A DNA stretch of 37,616 nt from Pelotomaculum isophthalicicum JI (GTDB lineage Bacteria; Bacillota; Desulfotomaculia; Desulfotomaculales; Pelotomaculaceae), in assembly GCF_029478095.1 (NCBI RefSeq), contig NZ_JAKOAV010000033.1, positions 1 to 37,616 of the forward strand, read 5' to 3'. Within the stretch, counting starts at the first letter, position 1. Every line of letters starts with the position of its first letter. Positions 157-21,472 of this stretch are shown here, in pieces. The notes beneath the pieces were generated by a model. That model was not told the DNA's origin. It worked only from the letters and a program-made list of their open reading frames with translations, and searched no databases. Both the position numbers and the translations under genes were made by a program.

Positions 157-253
157 TTTCTCCGAGCCTTTTTGCCTAAAGGTATATCTCATGGCAAGCA
201 GGCCATTTGGGTATGGCGGGAAACGGTCATGCCTCCCTTATGGAAAGGAGACA
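157..253 (+). promoter_or_regulatory. Moco-type riboswitch aptamer, copy 1
   Basis: Structured leader. P1 pairs UCUCC (159-163) with GGAGA (247-251). An internal arm carries CCUAAAG opposite CAUGGCAA, resembling a GAAA-tetraloop receptor. A GGG/CCC-flanked hairpin with the GGGAAAC apex follows, then GCCUCCC. The same layout recurs at 2852, 3013, 10322, 10721, 12606, 21201 and 21373 with compensatory changes in P1. Assignment to the molybdenum/tungsten cofactor class rests on remembered consensus and on the FmdE-type gene downstream. The distal GGAAAGG (242-248) is a perfect complement of CCUUUCC (335-341) in the terminator, so P1 and an antiterminator exclude each other. That implies an OFF switch on ligand binding. 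Confidence 0.7.
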
Positions 254-334
254 ATAAGCTGCAGGACCTTATGGTCTGTGAGTAATTATTACGTCTTCCT
301 CCGGAAGTCGTTTTTTATTACCGCTTGTTATTAT

Positions 335-364
335 CCTTTCCGTTTATGGAAAGGTTTTTTTATA
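335..364 (+). terminator. intrinsic terminator of riboswitch copy 1
   Basis: CCTTTCC (335-341) pairs with GGAAAGG (348-354), followed by a run of Ts. It lies between the aptamer and the first gene, so it serves as the expression platform. Confidence 0.8.
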
Positions 365-442
365 CTCTAGGGATAAGGAAGGAACTGCCGAGTACAATAA
401 AGAAGAATCTTTAGAAATAACTTGAAAAGGTGGTTCTGATAA

Positions 443-1258
443 ATGGAAATGTTGCAGATTACTCCGGTGGGGATTGTTCATTCTCCTTACAATGACCCGG
501 CGACAATTCCTGTACAAAACTACAGCGTGACTATCGAAGTTTTCCCCGCGTATGTTCAGGGGCTATGGGGAATTGAAGCGCACTCACACCTGTGGATTTT
601 ATCCTGGTTCCACAAGGCGCGGCGCGATCTGTTGCGGACCGTTCCAGGCAGAGTGAATCCGGACGCTCCTGAATACGGCGTATTCGGGCTGAGGGCGGCG
701 GGACGCCCGAATCCTATCGGGCTCTCTTTAGTAGAGTTGGTGAAGGTAGAGGATAACATTCTGCATGTGCGGGGTTTAGATGCAATCGACGGCTCACCCG
801 TTGTTGACATTAAGCCCTATTTTGAGCACGATATTATTTTTTCTCCCCGGGCTCCATACATAAGACCAAAAGACAGAGTAATGCGCTACCGGATGCTGTT
901 TAAGCAAGCATATAATCACCACCAGGAAGAATGCCGGGATTTTCAACTTGCCCTTCGCATGGCGATGGTGGCTGTGGATGAGTTTGGCAAGCTTAACTCC
1001 CCGGAGCTTAAGGTATCGGTTAAAGGGTCGGGTTGCCTGGCCGACACTATTCAGGGGTTGTCCAGAGCCAGGCTGGCTAACCCGGCCAGGTTTGAATACC
1101 AGGAGAGCGCGAAGAGTGTTGTAAACTGGTCGAATGGCACAAAGGGATTATCCATAAGTCTCGTTGGAAACCCGACTGTGGAAGAACTGCTGGACCTTGA
1201 TAGTACTGATTTCCTGGAAATAAAAGTTTTGGGAAAGGATGGTGGTGTCTATGTCTGA
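443..1258 (+). CDS. TrmO (TsaA-like) methyltransferase domain fused to an FmdE-like domain
   Basis: 271 residues. Residues 1-145 match the TrmO/TsaA family, which N6-methylates t6A37 in tRNA using S-adenosylmethionine. Visible motifs are GIVHSPY near the N-terminus, GRPNPIGLS and DIKPYFEHD. Residues 160-265 resemble the FmdE family, named from the molybdenum formylmethanofuran dehydrogenase operon: a helix like QLALRMAMVAVDEFG, then a GSGCLADTIQGL segment and a short strand-rich tail. Typical FmdE metal ligands such as HxxxCPG are not seen, so this half may be degenerate. ATG at 443 follows the SD-like AAAGGTGG. The gene sits behind a Moco-type riboswitch with its own promoter, which fits a role around Mo/W enzymes. 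The TrmO call is firm; the function of the fusion is unknown. Confidence 0.8.
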   Translation: MEMLQITPVGIVHSPYNDPATIPVQNYSVTIEVFPAYVQGLWGIEAHSHLWILSWFHKARRDLLRTVPGRVNPDAPEYGVFGLRAAGRPNPIGLSLVELVKVEDNILHVRGLDAIDGSPVVDIKPYFEHDIIFSPRAPYIRPKDRVMRYRMLFKQAYNHHQEECRDFQLALRMAMVAVDEFGKLNSPELKVSVKGSGCLADTIQGLSRARLANPARFEYQESAKSVVNWSNGTKGLSISLVGNPTVEELLDLDSTDFLEIKVLGKDGGVYV

Positions 1259-1291
1259 ACATGTCCAAATAGCAATATCGGGGGTAGCGTA

Positions 1292-2521
1292 ATGCCTACT
1301 AAAACCATCAAGCAAACCCTGGAGTACCGTTTTCCCGAATGGCTCAAGCTTACTGAAGGATTGTTCAATGAAGTTACAGCTTTTTACTTCAGTATAATCA
1401 AGGAGCATGATCTGATACTCGGACTAACCAATAAAAAGGCATTAACCGAACTTGAACGGTTGACCCACAAGACCAAAGACAACCCTTCACCACTTTTCCC
1501 TTTAAGATGGGACATACCGGCAATGTTCCGGCGGGCTTGTATAAACACCGCCATTGGGGCAGCCCGGTCATTCTTCTCCAAGCTGAAAAGATGGAAAGAT
1601 GCCAAAGCCAAGGCCGAAGCCAAGGGGAAAAAGTTTAAATACAGGCCGCCGGTGCCGCCCAGAGAGTGGCAGCGCAACACTTTGTTTTATACCGGCCAGT
1701 ACAAAGGCTACACCGGCAAGTCTATAATGCTGAAGTTGTACGACGGCAGCACCTGGCGCTGGGTGAAGTACCATTTAACCGGCAGGCGGGTTCAGGACGG
1801 TTGGAAGATAGGATGCCCTCGCGCAGTAATCAAGAAGAACCGGATTGAGCTGCATTTCCCGGTTGAAAAGGAAAAACCGGCGGTTAAGTCGGTTGCCGAA
1901 CAGGTTAAAGACCCAAACCTTAAAATTTGCGCTGTTGACTTAAACACGTGCGACAAGCTGGCGGTATGCGGTATATTCAAAAGCGACGGCACGCAGGTAG
2001 CCACCCGGTTCATCCGGGGCGGCGATAACCTAAACGGCCGTAGGAAACGACTTTTGGGCATAATCGCAACCAAGCTCAGTCTTACCGGTTCATTAAACAA
2101 GGATGAGCAGGACAATAAGGCCTTGTGGAATAAGATCCATAACATCGACGATAATGAAGCCCACCGGGTATCCCGCAGAATACTGGACTTTGCCCTGGAA
2201 CACGGAGCGAGTATCATCGTGTTTGAACACTCGAACAGTTTTAAACCCGAGCAGGGCAAATACAGCAGGCGGGCCAACTCCAGGCGTTCCTACTGGCTCC
2301 GGGGCAGGATATTCCACTATACCAAATACAAAGCCTGGGAGTATGGAATAATCACCAGCCGGGTCAACCCCAAGGACATAAGCCGGTTATGCGCCGGCTG
2401 CGGGGCGGAAATAGACCGGCGCGCACCGTTATTCACTTGTAAATGCGGTAAGAAAGGCAGTGTTGATCTAAACACCGTAAGAAATATAGGCAAAAAGTTC
2501 TTTTTAAGATACACGGCCTGA
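1292..2521 (+). CDS. tnpB: RNA-guided endonuclease TnpB family protein
   Basis: 409 residues, the usual TnpB length. The RuvC triad is visible: Asp in AVDLN (about residue 214), Glu in IIVFEH (about 311) and Asp in SVDLNTVRNI (about 391). Between the last two lies a zinc ribbon, CAGC followed by CKCGKKG. The N-terminal half has the basic region typical of OrfB (KAKAEAKGKKFKYRPP). TnpB proteins of IS200/IS605 elements are omega-RNA-guided DNA nucleases that help retain the element at its donor site. All catalytic residues are intact, so it is probably active. It starts 33 bp after the preceding stop codon; ATG follows GGGGGTAG. Confidence 0.9.
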   Translation: MPTKTIKQTLEYRFPEWLKLTEGLFNEVTAFYFSIIKEHDLILGLTNKKALTELERLTHKTKDNPSPLFPLRWDIPAMFRRACINTAIGAARSFFSKLKRWKDAKAKAEAKGKKFKYRPPVPPREWQRNTLFYTGQYKGYTGKSIMLKLYDGSTWRWVKYHLTGRRVQDGWKIGCPRAVIKKNRIELHFPVEKEKPAVKSVAEQVKDPNLKICAVDLNTCDKLAVCGIFKSDGTQVATRFIRGGDNLNGRRKRLLGIIATKLSLTGSLNKDEQDNKALWNKIHNIDDNEAHRVSRRILDFALEHGASIIVFEHSNSFKPEQGKYSRRANSRRSYWLRGRIFHYTKYKAWEYGIITSRVNPKDISRLCAGCGAEIDRRAPLFTCKCGKKGSVDLNTVRNIGKKFFLRYTA

Positions 2522-2790
2522 GCGGAAATAAGCGCGAACAAAGCCCTAAAGTCCGAAAGGCAAGGGTGTTCCCGCTCCCCATGAGCTGTAAATCCAAAAT
2601 GGGAGCAGGAACGGGCTTGGCACCGCCCGGTGTATCCGTCGCCCACTACGCTCTCAATGCGGTAGAGGCCACGCCTCAATTTACTGCGGGCAGCGACTAC
2701 GCACGGGTGCCCGAAGAAGCTGCCGGGATTCATCTCCCGGAGGAGCAGAGTGTCACAAAGTGCCTGAAATTAGGGCAAGAATAAGTTAAC
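2480..2790 (+). ncRNA. probable omega-RNA (TnpB guide scaffold)
   Basis: Omega-RNAs span the 3' end of tnpB and the right end of the element. Here about 270 nt of non-coding sequence after tnpB is rich in stems. One long stem pairs 2568-2582 with 2599-2612 (GUUCCCGCUCC with GGAGCAGGAAC), and a compact hairpin CCGGGA-UUCAUC-UCCCGG lies at 2723-2740. The 3' boundary is a guess. Confidence 0.55.
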
Positions 2791-2814
2791 GAAAAAGTAT
2801 ACCCCGGCAGGAAA

Positions 2815-2842
2815 TTGTTTTTTAATGTTGAATAGTTATATA
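2815..2842 (+). promoter_or_regulatory. promoter for tandem riboswitches and HdrD/ECF operon
   Basis: -35 TTGTTT (2815-2820), 16 bp, then -10 TATATA (2837-2842). The same arrangement, with surrounding sequence conserved (GGCAGGAAATTG before it, GTTGAAT in the spacer), precedes the paralogous riboswitch pair at 21164. Confidence 0.6.
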
Positions 2843-2851
2843 AAACAAAGA

Positions 2852-2952
2852 ATTCTCCGAGCCTGGCATACCTAAACAAAAGCAGGGTACGGTAACCAGG
2901 CCGTTAGGGTACGGTGGGAAACTCCTGTACCTCCCGGTGCGGAAAGGAGAGG
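2852..2952 (+). promoter_or_regulatory. Moco-type riboswitch aptamer, copy 2 (first of tandem pair)
   Basis: P1 UCUCC (2854-2858) pairs with GGAGA (2946-2950). The receptor arm is GCCUGG...CCAGGC enclosing UACCUAA and UACGGUA. The hairpin GUACGG/CCUGUAC carries a GGGAAAC apex and is followed by CCUCCC. AAAGGA near the 3' end can pair with UCCUUU in the terminator loop. Confidence 0.7.
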
Positions 2953-2963
2953 TTTTTGGAAAA

Positions 2964-3003
2964 AAGCTTTGTCCTTTTGCAACGGGCAAAGCTTATATTT
3001 TTT
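2964..3003 (+). terminator. terminator of riboswitch copy 2
   Basis: AAGCTTTGTCC (2964-2974) pairs along 11 positions with GGGCAAAGCTT (2984-2994), followed by a T-rich run. Confidence 0.85.
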
Positions 3004-3012
3004 AATGATGAT

Positions 3013-3112
3013 TACTCTCCGAGCCATATGACCTAAAGCTTTTAAGCCATGGTTTTCGGCCGGTAGGGTGTACCGGGAAACCGGTATGTCTCCCATTGCG
3101 AAAAGGAGAGTT
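3013..3112 (+). promoter_or_regulatory. Moco-type riboswitch aptamer, copy 3 (second of tandem pair)
   Basis: P1 ACUCUCC (3014-3020) pairs with GGAGAGU (3105-3111), 7 bp. The arm CCUAAAGC/GCCAUGG forms the receptor-like loop, and ACCGG-GAAA-CCGGU is a clean GNRA hairpin. GCGAAAA (3098-3104) is the exact complement of TTTTCGC (3147-3153) inside the terminator, giving an antiterminator. No separate promoter is evident, so the two switches probably act in series on one transcript. Confidence 0.75.
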
Positions 3113-3130
3113 CTTGATCCGGCTTATGTG

Positions 3131-3178
3131 CCGGGCTAACTTTGTTTTTTCGCAGAGTTTGCCCGGTATTATTTTTTG
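3131..3178 (+). terminator. terminator of riboswitch copy 3
   Basis: CCGGGC (3131-3136) with GCCCGG (3161-3166), and inner AACTTTG/CAGAGTT, followed by TATTATTTTTT. Confidence 0.85.
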
Positions 3179-3236
3179 CATGGCTGGAATAAGTTTTGCA
3201 GTAAAGGACCAGGCACTAACCGAAAGGAAAGGCAAA

Positions 3237-5255
3237 GTGGAGATTTATATTTTTTTTGTCCTCATGGTCATATCGTTAGGTTATTTTCTATGCGAGGTAT
3301 ATTGGCGCTGCCGCTACATAAAGTTGGGCAGGCCGGAAAACCGTTTTGACCGCCCGCTTGAACGCTGGAAATATTTTCTCACCCATGTGGCCGGCCAAAA
3401 GAAAATTATGAATAAACCCCTGTTTGGTTTTCTGCACGGGTTTATCATGTGCGGCTTTTGTGTCCTGTTGCCGGGCATCCCCAATATGGTTGCGGAAGGC
3501 CTTTTCAAAACCAGTATTCCTTATATCGGAGATAATCCCGGCTACCTTTTCATCAAAGATATTTTTATCGCTTTAATCATCTTCGGGATCGGCGGCAGCT
3601 TTTTGCGGCGGGTCGTTAAAAAGCCGGTCTGGCTGAAGAACACTCCCGTGGTTTTTGTAATCCTTGGATTGATCCTGGTCATCGCGATAACGGAAGTCCT
3701 GTTTCACGGAACCCGGCTCGCGCTTGGCGAAGGAGCCGCTTTAAGCGGGGCCGCCCCGCTGGCTGCGGCTGTTTCAAGGTTTCTGGAGGGCTTTAATGAA
3801 AATGCAATTCATGCCGCCGGGATGTTTTTCTGGTGGACCCACTACCTGGCTATTTTCTCATTATTGTTCATCATCCCCCACTCGAAACACCTGCATATGG
3901 TGTTCGCCCCTTTCAACACCTACTGGCACTCGCTGGAACCAAAGGGCGCTTTGCGTAAAATTCAATTTGACGACGAAAATGTTAAAACTTACGGGGCGAG
4001 CAAACTGGAGGACCTTACCTGGAAGCAGCTTTTCGAGGCTTACGCCTGCGTAAAATGCGGCCGCTGTGATGAAATCTGCCCCGCCCATCAGAGCGAAGAA
4101 CCGACCAAACCAAAAAGGTTCAACGGCCGCCTGCGCAATCACATAGAAAAAATTGCCCCGGTGCTTTTAAACCGGAAAGTCTGGCATCCAAAAGCTGCAA
4201 AGCAAAAAGCGGCGGAAGGTTCAATTTCCTACAAGACTAAAAAGGGCGTCAAGAAGAAAAACCTCATCGGTGACGTCTATGAAGAAGAATTTATTTGGAG
4301 CTGCGCCACCTGCGGGGGGTGCATGGAAACCTGCCCGATCTCGATCGAGCATACCTCCAGGCTGTTCGACCTGCGCCGTTATATTGTCTCGTCGGGGAAG
4401 AACGTGCCTGGGAAAATCAAGCAAGCCATTGCCGGCATGGAAAATTACGGCAACCCCTGGGGTGTCAGCCGCGAAACCGGATATGACCTGGCAAAAGAAT
4501 TGGAGATGCCAACCCTGGCCGAAAAACCCGACGCGCAGTACCTTTATTTTGTGGGCTGCGCCGGTTCGTTCGATGAGACGGCCGGGAGAGCAGCCGCCGC
4601 GTTTGTTAATATATTGAAGAAAGCAGGCGTCAGTTTCGCCGTGCTCGGACGTGAAGAATGGTGCTGCGGCGAGACGGCCCGCCGGATGGGAAATGAGCAC
4701 CTGTTCCAAAGGATCGCGCAAAAGAATGTATCGCTTTTCAACAAGTTAAATGTAAAGAATATTTTAACTGCCTGTACCCACTGCTTTAACACTTTGAAAA
4801 ACGAATATCCCCAGTTCGGCGGGAGATATAAAGTCATCCCGCACTCCGTTTTTTTAGCCGGCCTGCTGCACGAAGGCAGGATCAAGCCAGGCAAAAGTAT
4901 CGGCAAAATAATTACCTGTCACGATTCATGCTACCTGGGCCGTTACAATAATCTTTATAATGAGCCGCGGGAAATTCTGAAGTCCATACCGGGCGTCCGC
5001 CTGGCCGAAATGCCCCGTTCCAGGGAAAAATCTTTTTGCTGCGGCGCGGGGGGAGGCAGGTTTTGGATGAAAAGCGGGCCCGAAAACTTGATCGGCCAAA
5101 ACAGGGCCGGGGAAGCCCTTTCGACCGGAGCCGAGGTGGTCTGCACGACCTGTCCGTATTGCTTGGCCACTCTTTCTGAACAAATCAAGGTTAAAGGCGT
5201 TAATAACAGTATCAAAACCCTGGATATAGCTGAAATTCTGGAAATGAGCCTCTAA
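3237..5255 (+). CDS. membrane-bound HdrD-like Fe-S oxidoreductase (DUF224 / ETF-menaquinone reductase type)
   Basis: 672 residues from a GTG at 3237 preceded by GAAAGGAAAGG. The frame stays open back to 3096, but that part is riboswitch and terminator; ATG 3180 is an alternative start. The N-terminal 240 residues hold several membrane helices (NarI/cytochrome-b-like). Two 4Fe-4S motifs follow, CVKCGRCDEICP (about 269) and CATCGGCMETCP (about 355), then two CCG domains: CCGE (about 475) with ACTHC, and CHDSC (about 560) with CCGAGGG and TTCPYC. This is the layout of proteins proposed in syntrophs to pass electrons between EtfAB and membrane menaquinone. No etfAB is in the window, so the partner is unknown. 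First gene of a seven-gene run behind tandem riboswitches. Confidence 0.85.
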   Translation: MEIYIFFVLMVISLGYFLCEVYWRCRYIKLGRPENRFDRPLERWKYFLTHVAGQKKIMNKPLFGFLHGFIMCGFCVLLPGIPNMVAEGLFKTSIPYIGDNPGYLFIKDIFIALIIFGIGGSFLRRVVKKPVWLKNTPVVFVILGLILVIAITEVLFHGTRLALGEGAALSGAAPLAAAVSRFLEGFNENAIHAAGMFFWWTHYLAIFSLLFIIPHSKHLHMVFAPFNTYWHSLEPKGALRKIQFDDENVKTYGASKLEDLTWKQLFEAYACVKCGRCDEICPAHQSEEPTKPKRFNGRLRNHIEKIAPVLLNRKVWHPKAAKQKAAEGSISYKTKKGVKKKNLIGDVYEEEFIWSCATCGGCMETCPISIEHTSRLFDLRRYIVSSGKNVPGKIKQAIAGMENYGNPWGVSRETGYDLAKELEMPTLAEKPDAQYLYFVGCAGSFDETAGRAAAAFVNILKKAGVSFAVLGREEWCCGETARRMGNEHLFQRIAQKNVSLFNKLNVKNILTACTHCFNTLKNEYPQFGGRYKVIPHSVFLAGLLHEGRIKPGKSIGKIITCHDSCYLGRYNNLYNEPREILKSIPGVRLAEMPRSREKSFCCGAGGGRFWMKSGPENLIGQNRAGEALSTGAEVVCTTCPYCLATLSEQIKVKGVNNSIKTLDIAEILEMSL

Positions 5256-5300
5256 CTGTTGATATGAATAATTTGTAAAGGGGTGAAAGGTTTAACTTAT

Positions 5301-5570
5301 ATGGAGGCAAAAGAAGTGTTGATAAAATATGTGAAGGAAACGGGTGGGACAAAATGCTTTCTCGGGGACGACAGCAGCCGGGAGGATGTGCGCGCGACCA
5401 TGGTGCTTGCCACAGCCTGCCCGCTTTACAAGGATGACAATGAGGAGGAAATCTACCTGGAAGGCGTGCTGACCTGCTACAACTGCCGCTACCGCAGGTG
5501 GACGCGCCCCGGATTCAGCTGTTTTAAGAACTTCCCGGTGATACTCTCGACAATTAATAATTCTATATAG
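5301..5570 (+). CDS. small Cys-rich conserved protein, copy A
   Basis: 89 residues from ATG 5301, with SD AGGGGTG at 5278-5284; the paralogue at 21585 has the same start context. I do not recognise a family. The C-terminal third is nearly identical to the paralogue (CYNCRYRRWTRPGFSCFKNF) and holds a CxxC pair plus a third Cys. Two more Cys, at KCFLGDD and TACPLYKDD, precede it. It is acidic in the middle and has no signal peptide or membrane segment, so it is probably a cytoplasmic metal- or cofactor-binding protein (inference). Its association with Moco-type leaders at two loci suggests a Mo/W-related role. Confidence 0.65.
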   Translation: MEAKEVLIKYVKETGGTKCFLGDDSSREDVRATMVLATACPLYKDDNEEEIYLEGVLTCYNCRYRRWTRPGFSCFKNFPVILSTINNSI

Positions 5571-5588
5571 ACTAAACGAGGTAATGTT

Positions 5589-6026
5589 ATGTCGTTAAAT
5601 AAAAAAATTATAATCAGCATCGTTCTGATTATTTTAGCCGTAGCCGGTTCCTACCTGTTGGAGAACCTTTCAAAAGAGCGGGGGCTAAAATCCGCCACGG
5701 TGATCAAGATGCAGGAGAACAACAACCTTGTCGCTCTCATGGGTGTCGATGTGCTAAAAACGCTAAAAGATCAGGAGTCCCCCGGCGACAAGGATGCTAA
5801 AGGTCTGAGCCTGCTGTATGCCATGGGAGCGGCGGGCATCGGCGAGTTCAATCAAATCGAGGTTAAAGGCGTGGACAACAAATCTGTTTTCCAGGCAAAT
5901 AAGAACGAGATTACCAGGGACTATCTCTTGTACTTTACGGATCATGGAACCGTTAACTTGTGCCGGAAAAATGACTATCAACGTTTCCTTGTCGAGGATG
6001 TCAGTGAAATCAACAAAATAAATTGA
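5589..6026 (+). CDS. membrane-anchored protein of unknown function, upstream of ECF transporter
   Basis: 145 residues. An N-terminal signal-anchor (IIISIVLIILAVAGSYLL) is followed by a soluble extracytoplasmic domain. The end of that domain (IEVKGVD..., YLLYFTDHGTVNLC, YQRFLVEDVSEI) faintly recalls the small Ig-like/molybdopterin-oxidoreductase-type domains found near ECF genes in anaerobes. This resemblance is weak and unverified. SD GAGGT precedes ATG 5589. It lies 18 bp after the Cys-rich gene and 16 bp before the S component, so it is co-transcribed and may be an accessory binding protein of the transporter. Confidence 0.55.
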   Translation: MSLNKKIIISIVLIILAVAGSYLLENLSKERGLKSATVIKMQENNNLVALMGVDVLKTLKDQESPGDKDAKGLSLLYAMGAAGIGEFNQIEVKGVDNKSVFQANKNEITRDYLLYFTDHGTVNLCRKNDYQRFLVEDVSEINKIN

Positions 6027-6042
6027 TAAAGAGGTAACTGCG

Positions 6043-6624
6043 GTGGAGGATACAGCAAAGAAATACCAGGAGGAAAAAGCGCCGGTAGCGGAAAAATTCA
6101 TTTTCAGGCTCGGACTGGCCGATGTGCTCAGACTGACCATGTTCGGGACACTTATCTCGATCACCAAGGACATAACCAGGCTGCCGCTGCACCTGCCAGG
6201 ACATACCAGCATATATTGGATGGGGATCCTGGTTCTGGGCAAGGGGCTGATCCCCAAGTTCGGAGCGGGAATAATCATGGGCATTGTTTCAGGTGCGCTT
6301 GCCGTGCTGTTGGGGCTGGGGAAAGAAGGAGTGTTTGTATTTTTCAAATACTTCGTTCCGGGGTTATTAATCGACTTTCTCGCCCCGGTATTTTACAACA
6401 AGCTCGAAAACCCTTTCGTCGGCGCCATCTGCGGCACATTGACCAGCCTGTCGAAATTAGTTGCGAACCTCGTTCTGGGAATATTGCTTAAGATGCCGAT
6501 GGGATTTATCGCCCTGGGTCTGGGGTTCGCCTCGGCTTCCCATGTTTTGTTCGGCGCCGCGGGCGGACTGATCGCCGCGGTATTGATCAAGCGGCTGAGG
6601 CCAAGATTATCCACCTGGGAGTGA
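6043..6624 (+). CDS. ECF transporter substrate-binding (S) component, substrate unknown
   Basis: 193 residues from GTG 6043 (SD GAGGTAA). After a soluble 25-residue start come about six hydrophobic helices typical of ECF S components, and the two ATPases and the T component follow directly. The start LADVLRLTMFGTLISITKD is followed by PGHTSIYWMGILVLGKGL. I cannot assign a vitamin or metal substrate. The complete dedicated module (S-A-A'-T) indicates a group I ECF arrangement, which in known cases often moves metals or vitamins. Expression should fall under the tandem Moco-type riboswitches upstream. Confidence 0.7.
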   Translation: MEDTAKKYQEEKAPVAEKFIFRLGLADVLRLTMFGTLISITKDITRLPLHLPGHTSIYWMGILVLGKGLIPKFGAGIIMGIVSGALAVLLGLGKEGVFVFFKYFVPGLLIDFLAPVFYNKLENPFVGAICGTLTSLSKLVANLVLGILLKMPMGFIALGLGFASASHVLFGAAGGLIAAVLIKRLRPRLSTWE

Positions 6625-7458
6625 ATGAACATTATTGAACTGATCGACGTCACAAAAGAATACGACACCGGCCATTCGGATAAAAAACGCGCCCTCAAAA
6701 ACATAAACCTGGCCATCCGGCAGGGCGAGTACGTCGGGCTGATCGGGATGAACGGGTCCGGGAAAACCACCCTCGCCCGTCTCATCAACGGCCTGATTCA
6801 ACCCACGGCGGGCAAGGTGTATGTAAACGGACTGGACACGGCGGACAGGAGTTCTCTTAACGAAATCAGGCGCCAGGTGGGGATGGTCTTTCAAAACCCC
6901 GACAACCAGATTATCAGTTCCATCGTGGAGGAGGATGTCGCCTTTGGCCCGGAGAACCTGAGACTCCCGCCCGCGGAAGTAAAAGAGCGCATCGACTGGG
7001 CGCTGCGGTCCGTCGGCCTGGCGGAACTGCGCCATCACGCCCCGCACTTGCTTTCCGGCGGCCAGAAACAAAAAGTAACCATAGCGTCAGCCCTGGCCAT
7101 GCGGCCGGCCTGCCTGGTCCTGGACGAACCCACGTCCATGCTCGACCCGCGCGGCAGGGAAGAACTCATTGTGAACTTAAAAGAACTGAACGAAAAGCAC
7201 GGCATCACGATCATCCTGATCTCGCACAACATGGAAGACGTCGTCCATGCACAGCGCCTGATTGTGCTCAATGAAGGCGCCGTTTGCCTCGAAGGAGCGC
7301 CGTGGGAGGTTTTTACATCAGAAGAAAACCTCATAAATACGGGTTTAAAACCGCCCGAAATCGTCCAGTTGGCCAACGGCCTGAGAAAACGCGGCCACGC
7401 AATCGATAAAAAAATCATCAGCATGCGGCAGATGGTGGAATATATATGTCAATTATAG
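6625..7458 (+). CDS. ecfA1: ECF transporter ATPase subunit A
   Basis: 277 residues. ABC ATPase with Walker A GMNGSGKTT, Q-loop in VFQNPDNQ, signature LLSGGQKQK, Walker B CLVLDEPTSMLD and the H-loop in LISHNMEDV. The VFQNPDNQ form and the GPENL stretch are typical of CbiO/EcfA. It abuts the S component stop and overlaps the second ATPase by 13 bp, consistent with coupled translation. Confidence 0.9.
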   Translation: MNIIELIDVTKEYDTGHSDKKRALKNINLAIRQGEYVGLIGMNGSGKTTLARLINGLIQPTAGKVYVNGLDTADRSSLNEIRRQVGMVFQNPDNQIISSIVEEDVAFGPENLRLPPAEVKERIDWALRSVGLAELRHHAPHLLSGGQKQKVTIASALAMRPACLVLDEPTSMLDPRGREELIVNLKELNEKHGITIILISHNMEDVVHAQRLIVLNEGAVCLEGAPWEVFTSEENLINTGLKPPEIVQLANGLRKRGHAIDKKIISMRQMVEYICQL

Positions 7459-8306
7459 ATGTGAAAAACCTAACCCATACCTACTTGCCCGGCACTCCTT
7501 ACGAAAAAAAAGCCCTGGATGACATCACCCTTTCCGTAAACCAGGGCGAGTTCCTGGGCGTTGTGGGAGCGAACGGTTCCGGCAAATCAACGCTGATCCA
7601 GCACTTTAACGGACTGCTCAGCCCAACCAGCGGGGAAGTGACCGTTTGCGGGCGGGAAACATCCGACAAAAAACACAGGAATGAATTATGGAAAAAGGTC
7701 GGCCTGGTTTTCCAGTACCCTGAGCAGCAGATCTTCGAGGCCACCGTCTTCGAAGACGTGTCCTACGGACCCAGGAACCTGGGGCTTGGCTCCGCGGATA
7801 TTGAGCGCAGAACAATGGAAGCGTTGGAAAAAGTCGGCCTGGAACCGGGCACAGTGGCGGGACTGTCGCCCATCAGTCTCAGCGGCGGCCTGCGCAGGCG
7901 CGTGGCTATAGCGGGCGTGCTGGCCATGCGGCCGGAGATCCTGGTATTGGACGAACCGACCGCCGGCCTTGATCATTCGGGCCGGGAGATGATCTTGGAG
8001 CTGATCAAAAAACTGCAGCGGGAAGACCACATCACCATAGTGATGGTTTCTCACAGCATCAGGGAAATAATCCTGGTTGCCGGCCGCGTCGCTGTTTTGG
8101 AAAAAGGGAGATTAGCCGCTTACGGCGACACGGAAGAAGTCCTGCGCCAAAAAGGTTTCCAGAACCTGCCCGGCGTCATGCTGCCGGACTACCTCCAATT
8201 AATTTATACACTAGCCGGACGCGGCCAAAACGTAAACCCCGGAATCGTCACCCTGGCGGAGGCGGAGCTGGAAATAGCAAAACTCCTTGAGGAAAAAAAC
8301 AAATGA
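7446..8306 (+). CDS. ecfA2: ECF transporter ATPase subunit A'
   Basis: 286 residues. Walker A GANGSGKST, Q-loop VFQYPEQQ, signature SLSGGLRRR (departing from LSGGQ at the last position), Walker B ILVLDEPTAGLD and H-loop MVSHSIREI. It pairs with the preceding subunit to form the heterodimeric ATPase. It overlaps both neighbours (13 bp upstream, 4 bp downstream). Confidence 0.9.
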   Translation: MSIIDVKNLTHTYLPGTPYEKKALDDITLSVNQGEFLGVVGANGSGKSTLIQHFNGLLSPTSGEVTVCGRETSDKKHRNELWKKVGLVFQYPEQQIFEATVFEDVSYGPRNLGLGSADIERRTMEALEKVGLEPGTVAGLSPISLSGGLRRRVAIAGVLAMRPEILVLDEPTAGLDHSGREMILELIKKLQREDHITIVMVSHSIREIILVAGRVAVLEKGRLAAYGDTEEVLRQKGFQNLPGVMLPDYLQLIYTLAGRGQNVNPGIVTLAEAELEIAKLLEEKNK

Positions 8307-9127
8307 AACAAATGAAACAAACGAAACAAAAAAAACAAGCGAGAGGTCTGAAGCTGGGCCAGTTCGTCCTGGGCAATTCGGTCATCCACCAGCTTGACCC
8401 CAGGACCAAGATCATCGGCTGCTTTGTCGTCATCTTTTCAGTATTGATGAATTTCAAGTGGTACGTGATCCTGCTCAATATCTCCATCATCATAGCGGTC
8501 ATTTTATTGTCGCAGGTAAAAATAGCCCGTATTCTGCGCGGCTTGCGCAAGCTGAGGTACTTGTTTCTGTTTTCGTTTATCTTCCAGGCAATTCTCACAT
8601 CTGGCGAGCCGGTTTTTCACCTGGGCGGCGTTAGTGTGACCAGAGAGGGCATCGCCCTGGGCACGTCCACGATCTTTCGCCTGCTGATCCTGTACCTGGC
8701 TTCCTCCCTGCTGACTATGACCACGTCGCCGCTGAAGCTGGCCTCCGGGATCGAGTCCCTGCTCTCGCCACTGCGCTATCTGAGGATACCCGTGAGCCAG
8801 TTTTCCATGCTTATCAGCACCGCCTTGAGATTTATTCCGACCATCATCGAAGAAGCGGAGACCATAACGCGCGCCCAGAGGTCCCGCGGCGCGCAGTTTA
8901 ACTCACCTAAAATTATCACCAGGCTGAAAAGCTATACAGCCGTCCTGATCCCGCTGCTGGCGGCGTCACTGCAGCGGGCCAACGACCTGGCCGTCGCCAT
9001 GGAAAGCAGGTGCTACACCGGCGGCTCCAGCCGGATCAGAACCGGCAGCCTGCGTTTTAAGGGAAAAGACAGACTGGCGATAGGGTTTGTTTCCCTGGCC
9101 TTCGTGCTGTCAGTTGTATTGATCTAA
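8303..9127 (+). CDS. ecfT: ECF transporter transmembrane (T) component
   Basis: 274 residues. A very basic, Lys/Gln-rich N-terminus (from short CAAATGAAA-like DNA repeats at 8299-8337) precedes the EcfT core: GQFVLGNSVIHQLDPRTKI, several hydrophobic helices, and the coupling motifs RAQRSRGAQ and AMESRCYTGG, which match the A-R-G/S motifs that contact the ATPases. ATG 8303 overlaps the previous stop; ATG 8312 is an alternative. Confidence 0.9.
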   Translation: MKQMKQTKQKKQARGLKLGQFVLGNSVIHQLDPRTKIIGCFVVIFSVLMNFKWYVILLNISIIIAVILLSQVKIARILRGLRKLRYLFLFSFIFQAILTSGEPVFHLGGVSVTREGIALGTSTIFRLLILYLASSLLTMTTSPLKLASGIESLLSPLRYLRIPVSQFSMLISTALRFIPTIIEEAETITRAQRSRGAQFNSPKIITRLKSYTAVLIPLLAASLQRANDLAVAMESRCYTGGSSRIRTGSLRFKGKDRLAIGFVSLAFVLSVVLI

Positions 9128-9130
9128 TTA

Positions 9131-9211: not shown

Positions 9212-10129
9212 GTGTTTGCCGGCAGAAAAAACCTTTTTGTGAAGTCAGCCGTCTTATTGCTGTTGTTTTTATTCTTTGCCTCCGCCGCTTTTGCCGCCCA
9301 GGGAGGGGAAAAATCATCTTCCCCAGGAATACCCGGTCAAAAGCCGTTAAGTTTTGTTTCAATTACACTAGTTGACGGCGGCGGCAATGTGCAGGACGCC
9401 GCCGACGTACCCACGGAACCGAAATTCAAGCTGGAGTTCGACAAGAACGTGGTCAACAGCACCATCTGGGGGATTAACCAGAATTGCTTCAGCCTGTTCT
9501 CCGAAAACGGTGAGAACATCCCCGTTAGCGTGACCAAAGTGGATGACAGCATCGATTTTTCCCAGAGAAACAACGTATTCGTCCAGCCGTCCAGCCCTTT
9601 AAGTCCTGGAACATCATATACTTTAAAAGTGTCGCCGGACCTGAAAGCGAAAAATGGCGTTTCCGTCCTCGGAGGGACCACGTCCGGCCAGGGGTTAAAC
9701 ATTTCCTTCAAGACCCAGGGACAGGCGATATCACAGGCGGTAACGAAACCTGTTACGCAGCCTGCGGCACAAACCACAGCCGCCACCCAGCAGCCGGCTT
9801 CGCCTGATTCCCAGCCTGCCCTGCCGGGCGAAAAGAACGCCGCACAAGCAAACAGTGAGACCGCGCAGCTCCAGGCCAACGCCGGCGGCAATGAGGCAAA
9901 TACCGGTCAGGAAAACAAGTCGCCGGGAGCGGCGGCAGCCGGGCAGCAGCAAGTTGCCGGGAATACAAGCGGGGAAAGCGCGGCATCCGGGCAGACAGGA
10001 AAGCCGGAGAGCCCCGCGCAAGCCGGTATGGGACTGGATTACACCAATTTGCTGACTATCCTGACCGTCGTTTTAATCGCCGGCTGGATAGTGGTGGAAT
10101 TGTTTGTCAAGAAGAAAAAAAGGAGTTAA
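9212..10129 (+). CDS. secreted, C-terminally membrane-anchored Big_5-type Ig-like protein
   Basis: 305 residues from GTG 9212 (SD AAAGGATG). A signal peptide ends near ASAAFAA. Residues about 45-175 form an Ig-like module recurring in this window (FDKNVVNS, ENIPVSVTKVDDSIDFSQ, LSPGTSYTLKVSP). A low-complexity Ala/Gln/Pro/Gly linker of about 85 residues follows, then a C-terminal membrane helix (LLTILTVVLIAGWIVVEL) and a KKKKRS cytoplasmic tail. The domain therefore faces outward on a flexible stalk. It lies 84 bp after ecfT and may be co-transcribed, which would place a surface protein with the transporter. Function unknown. Confidence 0.7.
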   Translation: MFAGRKNLFVKSAVLLLLFLFFASAAFAAQGGEKSSSPGIPGQKPLSFVSITLVDGGGNVQDAADVPTEPKFKLEFDKNVVNSTIWGINQNCFSLFSENGENIPVSVTKVDDSIDFSQRNNVFVQPSSPLSPGTSYTLKVSPDLKAKNGVSVLGGTTSGQGLNISFKTQGQAISQAVTKPVTQPAAQTTAATQQPASPDSQPALPGEKNAAQANSETAQLQANAGGNEANTGQENKSPGAAAAGQQQVAGNTSGESAASGQTGKPESPAQAGMGLDYTNLLTILTVVLIAGWIVVELFVKKKKRS

Positions 10130-10297: not shown

Positions 10298-10321
10298 CGC
10301 TAGGGACGAAAATTTAATAAT

Positions 10322-10418
10322 TTTATCCGAGTCTAACCGCCTGTGGCTACGGCTATGGCGGCAGACCTTCAGGGTTTAACTGGAAACGGTTAAGCCTCCC
10401 GGTATGGAAAGGATAGGT
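10322..10418 (+). promoter_or_regulatory. Moco-type riboswitch aptamer, copy 4 (first of tandem pair)
   Basis: P1 has covaried to UAUCC (10324-10328) with GGAUA (10411-10415). The receptor arm is CCGCC-UGUG-GC...GC-UAU-GGCGG, a variant of the CCUAA/AUGG loop. The hairpin UUAACUG-GAAA-CGGUUAA keeps the GNRA loop with a wholly different stem sequence, so structure rather than sequence is conserved. Confidence 0.7.
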
Positions 10419-10430
10419 TTTTTAAGAAGA

Positions 10431-10472: not shown

Positions 10473-10720
10473 AATTGAAATTATTCTTTTCGTGATGTGT
10501 GGATAAAGTGGGTTTAGGCATAAATAAGAGAGCGATTTGTTATGGTAATATAGGATTATATTTCAAAAAGCGGGACTATTGTCCATATTAATTTAAGACC
10601 TAATACTTATTTACAGATTAAGACATTGCAGATAAAATATGTTCAATACTAAGGATTTATCTGTTAATATGACTTAATTATTCATTAAATTAAATAATTT
10701 GTATTTTTAAACTTAAATAT
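10473..10720. other. AT-rich spacer between tandem riboswitches
   Basis: About 250 bp of very AT-rich sequence with no supportable gene. The other two tandem pairs have only about 60 bp between aptamers, so this is an insertion, or it holds a separate promoter for copy 5. I could not pick a convincing -35/-10 pair. Confidence 0.5.
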
Positions 10721-10820
10721 TTCTTTCCGAGTCAATTAACCTAAAGCGTATAACCATGGTTTTTGGGCCTGCAGGGTGCGCCGGGAAACTAACGTGCCTT
10801 CCATTGCGAAAAGGAGAGTT
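10721..10820 (+). promoter_or_regulatory. Moco-type riboswitch aptamer, copy 5 (second of tandem pair)
   Basis: P1 CUUUCC (10723-10728) with GGAGAG (10813-10818). The receptor arm is CCUAAAGCGUAUAACCAUGG, then GGGUGCGCCGGGAAACUAACGUGCC. TTGCGAAAA (10804-10812) is the perfect 9-nt complement of TTTTCGCAA (10855-10863) in the terminator, a clear antiterminator. Confidence 0.75.
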
Positions 10821-10835
10821 TTTGATCTGGCTTAT

Positions 10836-12367: not shown

Positions 12368-12393
12368 AATCAGGTGAAATGAGCTGTTATTCT

Positions 12394-12511: not shown

Positions 12512-12605
12512 ATCATCCGAGTAACCCGCCTGTGGCTATTTGACTTATGACATACTGGTTTATTGCTTTTCAACCAATGTTTACCGGAAACTAACAATTT
12601 CATAC
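12512..12605 (+). promoter_or_regulatory. degenerate Moco-type aptamer (partial copy)
   Basis: Begins CATCCGAGTAACCCGCCTGT, nearly identical to the start of the complete copy at 12606, and later has UUUACCGGAAACUAACA. It lacks the GCCUCCC segment, the GGAAAGG distal strand and a terminator. It looks like a decayed first member of a tandem pair. Confidence 0.55.
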
Positions 12606-12728
12606 CACCACCCGAGTCTACCCGCCTGTGGCTATTTGGCACATTATCCTTGGCTTTAAGGGCTATGGCGGCTGACCGATAGGGTATACCTTGAAAAGGG
12701 TATGCCTCCCAGTGCGGAAAGGGTCTAG
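12606..12728 (+). promoter_or_regulatory. Moco-type riboswitch aptamer, copy 6
   Basis: P1 is ACCC (12610-12613) with GGGU (12721-12724), another compensatory version. The receptor arm is CCGCCUGUGG...GGCUAUGGCGG with an enlarged loop. The hairpin ACCUU-GAAA-AGGGU carries the GNRA loop and GCCUCCC follows. CGGAAA (12715-12720) complements TTTCCG (12758-12763) in the terminator loop. Confidence 0.7.
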
Positions 12729-12742
12729 TGCCAGTTATCTTC

Positions 12743-19007: not shown

Positions 19008-19041
19008 ATAATCAACAATGATGAAGAACGAGGTGACCACA

Positions 19042-19263
19042 GTGACTCAACAGTATTGTGCCCGTTTGATCCCCGAAAATGATGGCCGTTGGACAGTCGA
19101 GGTTCCGGCCCTTCCCGGATGTGTAACGTGGGGTAACACGAGGGAGGAAGCATTAGAGCGTATCAAAGAGGCCGTAGAACTATATTTAGAAGTGCTAAAA
19201 GAAGAGGGGAAACCCATCCCTGCTGACAAAAGCATTTTTACAAAAATAGAGGTAGCCATATGA
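19042..19263 (+). CDS. hicB: HicB-type antitoxin
   Basis: 73 residues from GTG 19042, which has a well-placed GAGGTG SD; ATG 19018 or 19021 would add 7-8 residues. The core GRWTVEVPALPGCVTWGNT and EEALERIKEAVELYLE matches the partly degraded RNase-H-like HicB fold. It is a short HicB without an obvious C-terminal DNA-binding domain. It precedes hicA and overlaps it by 4 bp; this antitoxin-first order is common outside Enterobacteria. Confidence 0.85.
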   Translation: MTQQYCARLIPENDGRWTVEVPALPGCVTWGNTREEALERIKEAVELYLEVLKEEGKPIPADKSIFTKIEVAI

Positions 19264-19490
19264 GCCACCTTCCCCAAATTACCGGCCTGGAGCTTATCCG
19301 GGCTTTACAACGGATTGGGTTCTATGTGCATAGAAAGAAGGGCAGTCACCGTTTTCTATATCATCGAGAAGATCACTCACGGCTAGCAATTGTGGCTGTG
19401 CATAAAGGAGAGACCATTCCACCTGGTACTCTCACTACAATATTGCGTACAGCCAAAATTACTTTAGATGAACTAAGAAATAATATATAA
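19260..19490 (+). CDS. hicA: HicA-type mRNA interferase toxin
   Basis: 76 residues. A dsRBD-like fold is implied by the pattern GLELIRALQRIGFYVHRKKGSHRFLY, with the catalytic His in GSHRF, then VPVH-like AVHKGETIPPGTL and a C-terminal TLDELR helix. HicA toxins cleave mRNA and are neutralised by HicB. The gene appears intact. Confidence 0.9.
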   Translation: MSHLPQITGLELIRALQRIGFYVHRKKGSHRFLYHREDHSRLAIVAVHKGETIPPGTLTTILRTAKITLDELRNNI

Positions 19491-21121: not shown

Positions 21122-21163
21122 GCAGAACGATATTGATAAAAAAAATTGCAAACTGGCAGGAAA

Positions 21164-21191
21164 TTGTTTGTTGGTGTTGAATAAGTATATT
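21164..21191 (+). promoter_or_regulatory. promoter for the second tandem riboswitch/Cys-rich locus
   Basis: -35 TTGTTT (21164-21169), 16 bp, -10 TATATT (21186-21191). Homologous to the promoter at 2815. Confidence 0.6.
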
Positions 21192-21200
21192 GTGTGAAAG

Positions 21201-21300
21201 AATCTCCGAGCTTGGCATACCTAAGCAAACAAGGTACGGTAGCCAAGCCGTTAGGGTACGGATGGGAAACCCCCGTACCTCCCGGTGCGGAAAGGAGGAG
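21201..21300 (+). promoter_or_regulatory. Moco-type riboswitch aptamer, copy 7 (first of tandem pair)
   Basis: P1 UCUCC (21203-21207) with GGAGG (21294-21298). The receptor arm GCUUGG...CCAAGC covaries with GCCUGG...CCAGGC of copy 2. Hairpin GUACGG/CCGUAC with a GGGAAACC apex. AAAGGA can pair with UCCUUU in the terminator loop. Confidence 0.75.
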
Positions 21301-21311
21301 TTTTTAGAAAG

Positions 21312-21353
21312 AAAGCTTTGTCCTTTTTTACAGCGGGCAAAGCTTTTATTTTT
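21312..21353 (+). terminator. terminator of riboswitch copy 7
   Basis: AAGCTTTGTCC (21313-21323) with GGGCAAAGCTT (21335-21345), then TTATTTTTA. Confidence 0.85.
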
Positions 21354-21372
21354 ACTCAGGAATTCTTTATAC

Positions 21373-21472
21373 TACTCTCCGAGCCTAAAGACCTAAAGCT
21401 TTTGAGCCATGGTTTTCGGCCGGCAGGGCGTACCGGGAAACCAGTATACCTTCCATTGCGAGAAGGAGAGTT
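21373..21472 (+). promoter_or_regulatory. Moco-type riboswitch aptamer, copy 8 (second of tandem pair)
   Basis: P1 ACUCUCC (21374-21380) with GGAGAGU (21465-21471). Receptor arm CCUAAAGCUUUUGAGCCAUGG, then the CCGGGAAACC apex. GCGAGAA complements TTTTCGC in the terminator with one G-U. Closely similar to copies 3 and 5. Confidence 0.75.

What the first reader, a model, noticed from the sequence alone, without database searches (positions are those of the whole stretch)
157..21472. Seven complete Moco-type riboswitches (plus one remnant) within 21 kb, three sets in tandem
The same structured leader recurs at 157, 2852, 3013, 10322, 10721, 12606, 21201 and 21373, with a decayed copy at 12512 (eight entries plus the remnant if tandem members are counted separately). 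P1 covaries (UCUCC/GGAGA, UAUCC/GGAUA, ACCC/GGGU, ACUCUCC/GGAGAGU), the GNRA hairpin stem changes freely, and each complete copy has its own terminator whose loop or arm complements the distal aptamer strand (for example TTGCGAAAA with TTTTCGCAA at copy 5). Such a density of one riboswitch class is rare. Assignment to the Moco/Tuco class is from memory and from Mo gene context.
Basis: partly seen in the sequence, partly recalled or inferred. Interest (0 to 1): 0.85.

Follow-up and report, generated by a model that had tools for sequence, protein, structure and literature searches.

The report
Molybdenum/tungsten-cofactor riboswitch cluster controlling importer
A Pelotomaculum-like anaerobe carries eight copies of a known molybdenum/tungsten-cofactor RNA switch within 21 kb; they are a known kind, but two duplicated double switches head an uncharacterised import system that may take up a pterin cofactor or the metals themselves.

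Summary
Confirmed: all eight elements match Rfam RF01055 (Moco riboswitch) above the curated score (48.8-75.4 bits). There are eight complete copies, not seven; the remnant is a 30-nt partial duplicate. All eight lack stem P3, the form that Regulski 2008 links to tungsten cofactor, and each is followed by a terminator-like hairpin. The genome has 21. Multiplicity, tandems and the P3-less form are known, and three relatives carry more (up to 30), so the switches alone are ordinary.

What the cluster controls is less ordinary. Two double-switch leaders are copies of one cassette (386 aligned columns, 83% identical). They head the two parts of a conserved gene set: ECF transporter (S, A, A', T), a membrane-anchored protein whose predicted fold matches pterin-binding PruR and the sulfite-oxidase Moco domain, an HdrD-like oxidoreductase, a TiaS-like protein and a small Cys protein. 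A second ECF family sits with sulfite-oxidase-fold surface proteins; Moco riboswitches lie within 2 kb upstream in 8 of 13 regions examined.

Best reading: off-switches for Mo/W acquisition. Boldest: an importer for molybdopterin-type cofactor. Against: de novo synthesis looks intact (MoaC in 11 of 11); no substrate is shown.

The parts
148..267 (+). Moco riboswitch aptamer 1 (P3-less), before a TrmO-like gene 443-1258; terminator 335-354
   Evidence: RF01055 75.4 bits; hairpin -9.0 kcal/mol + U7; TrmO
2806..3177 (+). Leader cassette 1: aptamer A (2843-2965) + terminator 2964-2994, aptamer B (3005-3124) + terminator 3128-3169
   Evidence: RF01055 67.3 and 65.9 bits; 83% identical over 386 aligned columns to cassette 2; hairpins
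3240..5255 (+). HdrD/CCG-type membrane Fe-S oxidoreductase (first gene after cassette 1; exact start not fixed)
   Evidence: Pfam CCG, Fer4_8; NCBIfam TfrB/LdhH-like below cut-off
5283..5570 (+). Small Cys protein (P0001), resembles 21585-21821
   Evidence: No Pfam/NCBIfam match; 93 encoding places found in named genomes, best 80 kept
5589..6026 (+). P0002: one predicted N-terminal helix (membrane anchor by sequence) plus a domain predicted with PruR / sulfite-oxidase Moco-domain fold
   Evidence: AF2 pLDDT 87.3; Foldseek 7kom E 1.2e-3; VIA Z 8.4-10.0 for five PruR entries, 5.1-10.3 for SUOX-family entries, about 105 residues
6043..6624 (+). P0003: ECF S component
   Evidence: PF09819 E 2e-5, 25.1 bits vs cut-off 25.2; AF2 pLDDT 77.5; 5edl VIA Z 16.7, Foldseek E 2.6e-3
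6625..8306 (+). EcfA1 (6625-7458) and EcfA2 (7446-8306)
   Evidence: NCBIfam TIGR04520 358.6 bits and TIGR04521 334 bits, both over cut-off
8303..9127 (+). EcfT (CbiQ family)
   Evidence: PF02361 2.6e-41
9212..10129 (+). Big_5 domain protein with C-terminal hydrophobic stretch, part of the conserved set
   Evidence: PF13205 2e-8; conserved neighbour
10313..10430 (+). Moco aptamer 4; terminator 10429-10466; 3' part shared with type A copies
   Evidence: RF01055 74.9 bits; 82% over 79 nt to cassette 2
10713..10832 (+). Moco aptamer 5, type B; terminator 10834-10880; precedes an Ig-like surface protein 11069-12367
   Evidence: RF01055 55.5 bits; in the type B clade; 81% over 163 columns to the 21365 copy; Big_5 weak, 21.2 bits vs cut-off 23.6
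12514..12542 (+). Remnant: partial duplicate of the 5' half of aptamer 6
   Evidence: 90% identity over 30 columns; no RF01055 match
12598..12740 (+). Moco aptamer 6 with insert in the P2 loop; terminator 12745-12773; precedes 1965-aa beta-propeller/fn3/Big_5/SLH protein 12945-18842
   Evidence: RF01055 48.8 bits
21155..21536 (+). Leader cassette 2: aptamer A (21192-21313) + terminator 21311-21347, aptamer B (21365-21484) + terminator 21484-21531
   Evidence: RF01055 63.5 and 64.2 bits
21585..21821 (+). Small Cys protein 2 (P0009), first gene after cassette 2
   Evidence: Sequence resemblance to P0001
21897..22700 (+). TiaS/methanogenesis-marker-11-like protein (P0008)
   Evidence: NCBIfam TIGR03280 E 1e-11 and TiaS 6e-8, both far below cut-off
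23520..24353 (-). Molybdenum storage protein subunit homologue
   Evidence: phmmer E 1e-68 to MoSto beta chains
24875..25948 (+). MOT1-family molybdate transporter
   Evidence: PF16983 5e-47

Best explanation
The eight elements are P3-less Moco-family (RF01055) riboswitches acting as transcriptional OFF switches in a Pelotomaculum-like, tungsten-using anaerobe. When W/Mo-pterin cofactor is plentiful, the ligand-bound aptamer holds its distal strand (..GGAAAGGAGA), the downstream terminator folds and the genes stay off. When cofactor is scarce, the distal strand is free to pair with the terminator arm or loop and RNA polymerase reads on. In the two A+B cassettes the A terminator tail ends about 10-20 nt before P1 of B, leaving little room for a promoter, so B is probably reached only by reading through A: two gates in series, giving a lower leak and a steeper response. 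The genes released are for Mo/W acquisition: an ECF transporter with an extracytoplasmic pterin-binding-fold protein and its conserved partners (HdrD-like, TiaS-like, small Cys protein), plus Ig-like/SLH wall proteins. Shown: class, P3 absence, cassette duplication, terminator-like hairpins, conserved gene set, predicted folds. Inferred: OFF direction, ligand (W- rather than Mo-cofactor), series gating, acquisition role. The transported molecule is not established.
For: Class; 21 in genome. P3 absence in all 8: alignments. Terminator-like hairpins 8 of 8. Cognate aptamer/terminator pairing. Cassette duplication and tree. Tungsten context: TupA-like and TupBC-like genes behind riboswitches of this genome, TupA-like/TupC-like genes behind riboswitches in G019 and G015, AOR family in 10 of 11 genomes with the ECF set. 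ECF set: P0002 and P0003 (60% identity or more for P0003) found in exactly the same 11 of 113 genomes, adjacent in all (window). Riboswitch link: 28 of 80 loci with the small Cys gene hold a Moco RNA, 50 hits in 1.05 Mb, against 372 in about 171.5 Mb in own genome plus 59 relatives (that search used stricter filters, so its rate is a lower bound). Second ECF family: Moco RNA within 2 kb upstream on the same strand in 8 of 13 regions.
Against: No ligand binding or expression was tested. The ECF set itself has a riboswitch in the fetched region in only 3 of 11 genomes of the order (own, same species, G019), so control by this RNA is not an obligate feature. Aptamer/terminator pairing is weak for two of the three type B copies, and in only 1 of 20 copies is the own partner the best of all (C19b, whose pairing includes sequence beyond the terminator). 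In-silico folding of the whole leader is not a switch assay; for some copies the minimum-energy fold disrupts the aptamer. The surface-protein targets have no known Mo/W role.
Confidence: 0.75

Rival explanations
1. The ECF systems import a pterin cofactor or precursor (molybdopterin, Moco/Wco or a breakdown product). The SUOX/PruR-fold extracytoplasmic domains catch it, the S component takes it through the membrane, and kinase/MobB partners of the second system re-activate it inside.
For: Riboswitch ligand is the cofactor (PMC2408646). P0002 fold: PruR pterin-binding proteins and SUOX/YedY Moco domains. Second ECF operons pair the S component with PF00174 surface proteins, MobB (E 5e-22 in L196, 2e-23 in L204) and APH-type kinases (L196, L204, L205). 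Gram-negative forms add TonB (Pfam in L062, L104) and a TonB-dependent receptor, and L053 (Bacillus) has a FecCD/Peripla_BP_2 importer in place of ECF, transporter types used for large scarce cofactors or chelates (recalled). Two SUOX surface proteins (own 464-aa, L184 501-aa) have Sec-like, not twin-arginine, starts by eye.
Against: MoaC present in 11 of 11 genomes with the first ECF set, so salvage is not essential. PruR's site is described as likely too small for Moco (PMC13259868 passages). Pocket residues were not tested in P0002. Free Moco is described as unstable (PMC9793310 passages).
Confidence: 0.33
2. The ECF systems import the metals themselves, as oxyanion or as a chelate (a Mo/W-phore); P0002 and the SUOX-fold surface domains are metal- or cofactor-scavenging binders or electron-transfer proteins.
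For: Neighbouring Mo/W genes: MoSto homologue and MOT1 in the window, MoSto-like gene beside TiaS-like and Cys genes in Citrifermentans (L102). FecCD-type importer (L053) and TonB receptors fit chelate uptake. H. influenzae MolBC is a FecCD-type molybdate importer (recalled).
Against: TupABC-like and MOT1 genes already cover oxyanions in the same genome (TupB by eye). No ECF S component for an oxyanion is known to me (recalled). Does not explain the pterin-binding fold.
Confidence: 0.35
3. The ECF modules move a flavin or other cofactor outward or inward for surface redox proteins; the riboswitch ties this redox system to W/Mo-enzyme status.
For: ApbE precedes the second S component in L195 and L202; FMN_bind fused to PF00174 and a Fer4_5/FMN_bind protein in L204. 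ECF-related flavin export for ApbE-type flavinylation is shown in Listeria (PMC9973259 abstract).
Against: No ApbE or FMN_bind match among the ten window proteins from 443 to 10129. OFF control by the cofactor fits scavenging better than export.
Confidence: 0.17
4. Types A and B sense different ligands (for instance Wco and Moco), so the tandem is a two-input gate rather than two gates for one ligand.
For: A and B within a pair are only 47-52% identical while copies of one type are 68-82% identical (the A-position copy at 10313 is diverged, 51-54% to the other two); order A then B kept in three leaders.
Against: Both types lack P3 and keep the conserved core; old divergence explains the difference. 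Tandem Moco/Wco doublets are already classed as same-ligand pseudo-cooperative systems (PMC9481103 passages).
Confidence: 0.12

Closest known systems
Moco/Tuco(Wco) riboswitch, RF01055 (Regulski 2008, PMC2408646; tandem survey PMC9481103)
   Same: Sequence/structure model match, P3-less group, terminators, tandems, many per genome (S. wolfei at least 15, D. hafniense 8, triple array in S. wolfei)
   Different: A+B cassette duplicated as one leader in front of two parts of one gene set; targets include an ECF transporter and Ig/SLH wall proteins. Five in a row in L117 exceeds the triplets reported in the passages I saw
ECF transporters, S components near PF09819 (YkoE family, name recalled)
   Same: S fold (5edl), EcfA, EcfA', EcfT adjacent
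   Different: Moco-riboswitch control, SUOX/PruR-fold partner, unknown substrate; Geobacterales forms with TonB and receptor
PruR / DcpA pterin signalling
   Same: Extracytoplasmic SUOX-type fold
   Different: P0002 is coded with an ECF transporter and seems membrane-anchored; 11-16% identity over the aligned part, binding untested; DcpA was not searched for
TupABC, MolBCA, MOT1, MoSto
   Same: Mo/W acquisition and storage; Tup-like genes and MoSto/MOT1 homologues lie in this genome or window
   Different: Not ECF; no pterin-fold partner (recalled)
Listeria FmnA/EetB ECF flavin exporter
   Same: ECF subunits placed with ApbE/FMN_bind proteins in the second family
   Different: No Moco riboswitch or SUOX-fold partner in the abstract (only the abstract was read)

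Membership tests
RF01055 Moco riboswitch | Score above gathering threshold over the full model | tested here: met
   8 of 8, 48.8-75.4 bits vs 36, model 1-135
RF01055 Moco riboswitch | GAAA tetraloop on P4 | tested here: met
   GAAA in 8 of 8 window copies
RF01055 Moco riboswitch | P1 pairing kept by compensatory change | tested here: inconclusive
   Pair 4 exceeds shuffles (14/5000); pairs 3, 5-7 do not
RF01055 Moco riboswitch | Binds Moco/Wco | not testable with these tools
   Needs in-line probing or reporter assay
Tuco/Wco subgroup | No P3 stem | tested here: met
   P3 columns deleted in 8 of 8 alignments
Tuco/Wco subgroup | Host uses tungsten | tested here: met
   Four AFOR_C matches in own genome; Tup-like genes behind riboswitches. 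Genes only, no metal measured
ECF transporter | S component fold | tested here: met
   Predicted model: 5edl VIA Z 16.7 over 166 residues; other S components 8.7-13.8, mixed with unrelated helical proteins up to 10.2; PF09819 at the cut-off
ECF transporter | EcfA, EcfA' and EcfT coded alongside | tested here: met
ECF transporter | Transport of a known substrate | not testable with these tools
PruR / SUOX-fold pterin-binding protein | SUOX-type fold | tested here: met
   Predicted model only: VIA Z 8.4-10.0 to PruR entries, up to 10.3 to SUOX family; one entry of unclear relation (9a64, YlaL model) at 8.4, next clearly unrelated row 5.0; Foldseek best E 1.2e-3
PruR / SUOX-fold pterin-binding protein | Pterin-contacting residues | not tested
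   No residue-level superposition available; few polar residues conserved in A3
Molybdenum storage protein | Sequence homology over the chain | tested here: met
   E 1e-68 to beta, 5e-47 to alpha chains

The most novel reading that the evidence does not exclude
Two ECF transporter families, both linked to Moco/Wco riboswitches and to extracytoplasmic sulfite-oxidase/PruR-fold proteins (the second also to MobB and an APH-type kinase), are uptake and salvage systems for molybdopterin-type cofactor; in Gram-negative forms a TonB-dependent receptor brings it across the outer membrane. This would be, to my knowledge, the first dedicated bacterial importer of a Mo/W pterin cofactor.
Probability: 0.3. 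Interest if true: 0.88.

Novelty: new variant of a known kind. Interest (0 to 1): 0.6.

Why it matters
The riboswitches are a known class, but coenzyme riboswitch regulons are how vitamin ECF transporters were recognised (PMC3766115 passages). The same logic here points to an unassigned ECF transporter in Clostridia and, in related form, Geobacterales, tied to a pterin-binding fold. How pterins cross membranes is stated to be unknown (PMC13259868 section 10), and uptake of exogenous Moco was said in 2022 to have been neither examined nor observed outside C. elegans (PMC9793310 passage). If the reading holds, both become testable with named genes. In the library I had, 3 papers hold 'energy-coupling factor', 'tungst' and 'riboswitch' together and 1 holds 'ECF transporter', 'molybdenum cofactor' and 'S component'. 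I read passages of two of those four (PMC13119186, PMC3766115), and neither describes such a system in the passages seen; the other two I did not open.

Tried and rejected
Rejected: a new riboswitch class (strong RF01055 hits). Rejected: tandems as simple local duplication of one aptamer; A and B are 47-52% identical, whereas the whole A+B leader is duplicated. Rejected: 'rare density' as an argument for novelty. Considered: a simple thiamin-type reading of the S component from PF09819; the riboswitch and partners do not fit, but the substrate is open. P0003's two weak hits in G015 and G013 (28%) proved to be members of the second S family.

Led nowhere: alignment A1 mixed strands because minus-strand loci are not turned, so it was redone as A2 (one sequence of A1, L044, left out). 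RNAalifold on A2 missed P1, so model R1 is mostly sequence. I rescanned with Rfam 13 of its 28 hit loci (all 29 R1 hits of those 13 confirmed) and 11 of the 13 EcfS2 regions (14 of 14 R1 hits); L184's two copies were seen by Rfam through overlapping L144; L205 rests on R1 and on the Rfam-based. The simple terminator scan missed the hairpins. My ORF picker lost genes in GC-rich Geobacterales loci: after 50 riboswitches 7 had no called gene and 13 were 'other'. C62 was left out of the pairing test because it has no terminator; leaving out C19b too gives 149 of 20000, and C45p and C45m as well 218 of 20000. No residue-level test of the P0002 pocket was possible. EcfS2 regions: 13 of the 33 matches were examined. 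Ten are the ten best matches (8 of these 10 have the riboswitch within 2 kb); the other three (L204, L205, L206) I picked knowing that a Moco RNA lay on the same contig, and 0 of 3 have it within 2 kb.

Full report
OBSERVATION. cmscan finds RF01055 at all eight stated places on the + strand, each across the full model and above the gathering score. So there are eight complete copies, not seven. The remnant at 12512 is a 90% duplicate (30 columns) of the 5' part of the 12598 copy without an Rfam match of its own. The whole genome (3.61 Mb, 93 contigs; the window is contig C33) has 21 copies over threshold, eight of them in this 37.6-kb contig. The organism is Pelotomaculum-like: same-species genome G112 has a contig of 11,859 bases carrying the same genes, matching in length and content MVQK01000039.1, Pelotomaculum sp. 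PtaB.Bin013.

KIND. In the eight alignments the P3 stem is absent. Regulski et al. (PMC2408646, sections 5, 6 and 11 read) found 58 of 176 Moco RNAs without P3, tied these to tungsten-cofactor use, and reported at least 15 copies in S. wolfei, eight in D. hafniense and tandem and triple arrays. PMC9481103 (passages) lists 13 doublets and two triplets for Moco and classes Moco/Wco tandems as same-ligand systems. In a search of this genome and 59 relatives, 59 of 60 have at least one copy, and G019, G048 and G015 exceed this genome with 30, 26 and 23. Multiplicity, tandem and P3-less form are therefore known. L117, a Syntrophomonadaceae MAG, has five in a row, all over the Rfam threshold.

ANATOMY. 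Each copy is followed by a hairpin with a U-rich tail (-9.0 to -31.8 kcal/mol). A tree of the 21 copies groups 3005, 10713 and 21365 (type B, 68-78% identical), and 2843 with 21192 (type A, 82%); A and B within a pair share 47-52%. Window 2806-3177 and 21155-21536 align over 386 columns at 83%, so the leader was duplicated whole. The A terminator tail ends about 10-20 nt before P1 of B in both cassettes (coordinates), so both gates very probably lie on one transcript. In the third pair the gap is about 240 nt; promoter-like matches in 10130-11080 are slightly above chance (6 found on both strands, mean 3.5, sd 1.9), so it may be two units. The distal aptamer strand pairs with the downstream arm or loop better with its own partner than with swapped ones on average, with individual copies ranging from convincing (10313, 7/1000 shuffles) to not (21365, 416/1000). 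This supports an OFF switch but does not prove it.

TARGETS. Genes after the window copies: TrmO; HdrD-like oxidoreductase, small Cys protein, P0002, ECF S, A, A', T and a Big_5 membrane protein; an Ig-like surface protein; a 1965-aa propeller/fn3/Big_5/SLH protein; a second small Cys protein and a TiaS-like protein. A MoSto homologue and a MOT1 transporter follow. Elsewhere in the genome copies precede TupBC-like and TupA-like genes, a molybdopterin oxidoreductase, a hydrogenase-like pair (by eye), cytochrome c assembly proteins, an HdrD-like protein (by eye), a sensor kinase and surface proteins; for C13, C44 and C45m I assigned no clear target.

THE CONSERVED SET. P0003 and P0002 relatives occur in 13 and 11 of 113 order genomes; the two extra P0003 hits are 28% matches to another family. 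In the 11 shared genomes the ECF genes, the Big_5 membrane protein, P0002 and usually the HdrD, TiaS-like and Cys genes lie together (exceptions in the fetched stretches: L174 is cut by its contig end, L175 shows no HdrD, TiaS-like or Cys gene, L182 no HdrD, L178 and L181 no Cys gene, and L180's EcfA1 was not called). The set also occurs in Sporomusa ovata (L087; without HdrD in L052) and, cut before the S component, in a Thermoanaerobacterales MAG (L084). In the window it is split in two, each part headed by a cassette; in G019 and L084 one Moco RNA heads the joined operon. In the other eight genomes of the 11, no Moco RNA was found in the fetched region.

BEYOND THE ORDER. Of 80 loci with the small Cys gene (L051 is the same species as the window) 28 hold a Moco RNA by model R1, 50 hits in 1.05 Mb; 13 of the 28 were rescanned with Rfam and all confirmed. 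The rate is about 2.2 per Mb (372 in about 171.5 Mb, own genome included, summed). First genes downstream: tandem member 10, Big_5 9, TiaS-like 5, Cys 2, EcfA 2, HdrD 1, TrmO 1, other 13, none called 7; HdrD and TrmO are both in L051. In L053 (Bacillus sp.) the TiaS-like/Cys pair lies with a FecCD permease, ATPase and Peripla_BP_2 lipoprotein by Pfam; L097, L107 and L130 look the same by eye except that L107 shows no lipoprotein. In Geobacterales and relatives it lies with EcfA, EcfT, a distant S component, TonB (Pfam in L062, L104) and a TonB-dependent receptor (Pfam in L062, L059, L104; 52-65% identity to the L062 receptor in L115, L119, L128; 25-29% in L089, L109); L059 has the receptor and an ATPase but no T or S match.

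SECOND ECF FAMILY. In G019 a tandem Moco RNA precedes an S component (PF09819 E 8.5e-17; 30% identical to P0003) and surface proteins with the PF00174 molybdopterin-binding domain and SLH. Relatives occur in 25 of 113 order genomes, 33 matches. With G019's I examined 13 of these: Moco RNAs lie within 2 kb upstream on the same strand in 8 of 13 (L184, L195, L197-L202; in L201 a TupA-like gene lies between), at about 4.7 kb with same-strand genes between in L204, elsewhere in L205, and none in the own-genome region L196, L203 and L206 (L205 by R1). Among the ten best matches it is 8 of 10; three more were picked with knowledge of a Moco RNA on the contig (0 of 3 within 2 kb). In the own genome copy C22b lies about 14 kb upstream on the same strand. 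Some operons add MobB and an APH-type kinase (L196, L204; kinase also L205), ApbE (L195, L202) or FMN_bind proteins (L204).

FOLDS. P0002 (AF2, 14 sequences, pLDDT 87.3) matches PruR pterin-binding proteins at Z 8.4-10.0 and sulfite-oxidase-family Moco domains at Z 5.1-10.3 over about 105 residues; one entry of unclear relation (9a64) scores 8.4 and clearly unrelated rows 5.0 or less. Identity is about 10-17% and Foldseek E-values are modest (best 1.2e-3, none at 0.001 or below), so this is a fold statement. P0003 (pLDDT 77.5) matches ECF S components, best 5edl at Z 16.7; unrelated helical proteins reach 10.2.

READING. Solid: riboswitch class, duplication, linked ECF systems. Likely: OFF control and a role in Mo/W acquisition. 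Open: the substrate. The cofactor reading (0.3-0.35) rests on riboswitch logic, the pterin-binding fold, MobB/kinase partners and receptor types. Against it stand intact de novo synthesis (MoaC in 11 of 11; other moa/moe genes were not searched), the report that PruR's site is likely too small for Moco and Moco's instability. The metal/chelate reading is about as likely. A flavin-traffic reading is possible for the second family. The small Cys and TiaS-like proteins and the HdrD-like enzyme have no assigned role here.

LITERATURE SEEN. Sections: PMC2408646, PMC13259868. Passages: PMC2408646, PMC9481103, PMC3766115, PMC13119186, PMC13259868, PMC9793310, PMC11334425. Abstract and outline: PMC9973259. 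Search listings. Not finding a described Mo/W-cofactor importer is limited to those searches of an open-access library.

Noticed in passing
window 32902-32991 (-): c-di-GMP-I riboswitch (RF01051, 52.9 bits) before a CitMHS-family transporter gene (31374-32741 -), next to a FIST-GGDEF gene (33111-34958 -).
   Followed up: no
L117:882-1913: Five Moco riboswitches in a row (all over Rfam threshold) before a gene that looks by eye like a NuoG/formate-dehydrogenase subunit, in a Syntrophomonadaceae MAG; more than the triplets in the papers I saw.
   Followed up: partly
L202:5128-5594 and L097:8418-8998: Triple Moco riboswitch arrays.
   Followed up: partly
L141, L142 (G019 contig C210): Six Moco riboswitches precede secreted-looking proteins of 240-2979 aa that resemble surface proteins of the window's genome; two of them were scanned with Pfam and hold Big_5, NHL, Shr-like_HID or dockerin domains.
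   Followed up: partly
window 1292-2521: TnpB gene without an obvious TnpA between TrmO and cassette 1; kept at the same place in the same-species genome (93% identity).
   Followed up: no
window 24370-24690 (-): 106-aa protein beside the MoSto homologue, no family match; relatives lie near small Cys, TiaS-like or MoSto genes in L052, L076 and L102.
   Followed up: no
window 19018-19490: HicB/HicA toxin-antitoxin pair inside the riboswitch cluster.
   Followed up: no
L130:15682-15731: Na+ riboswitch (RF03071) in Sporotomaculum syntrophicum.
   Followed up: no
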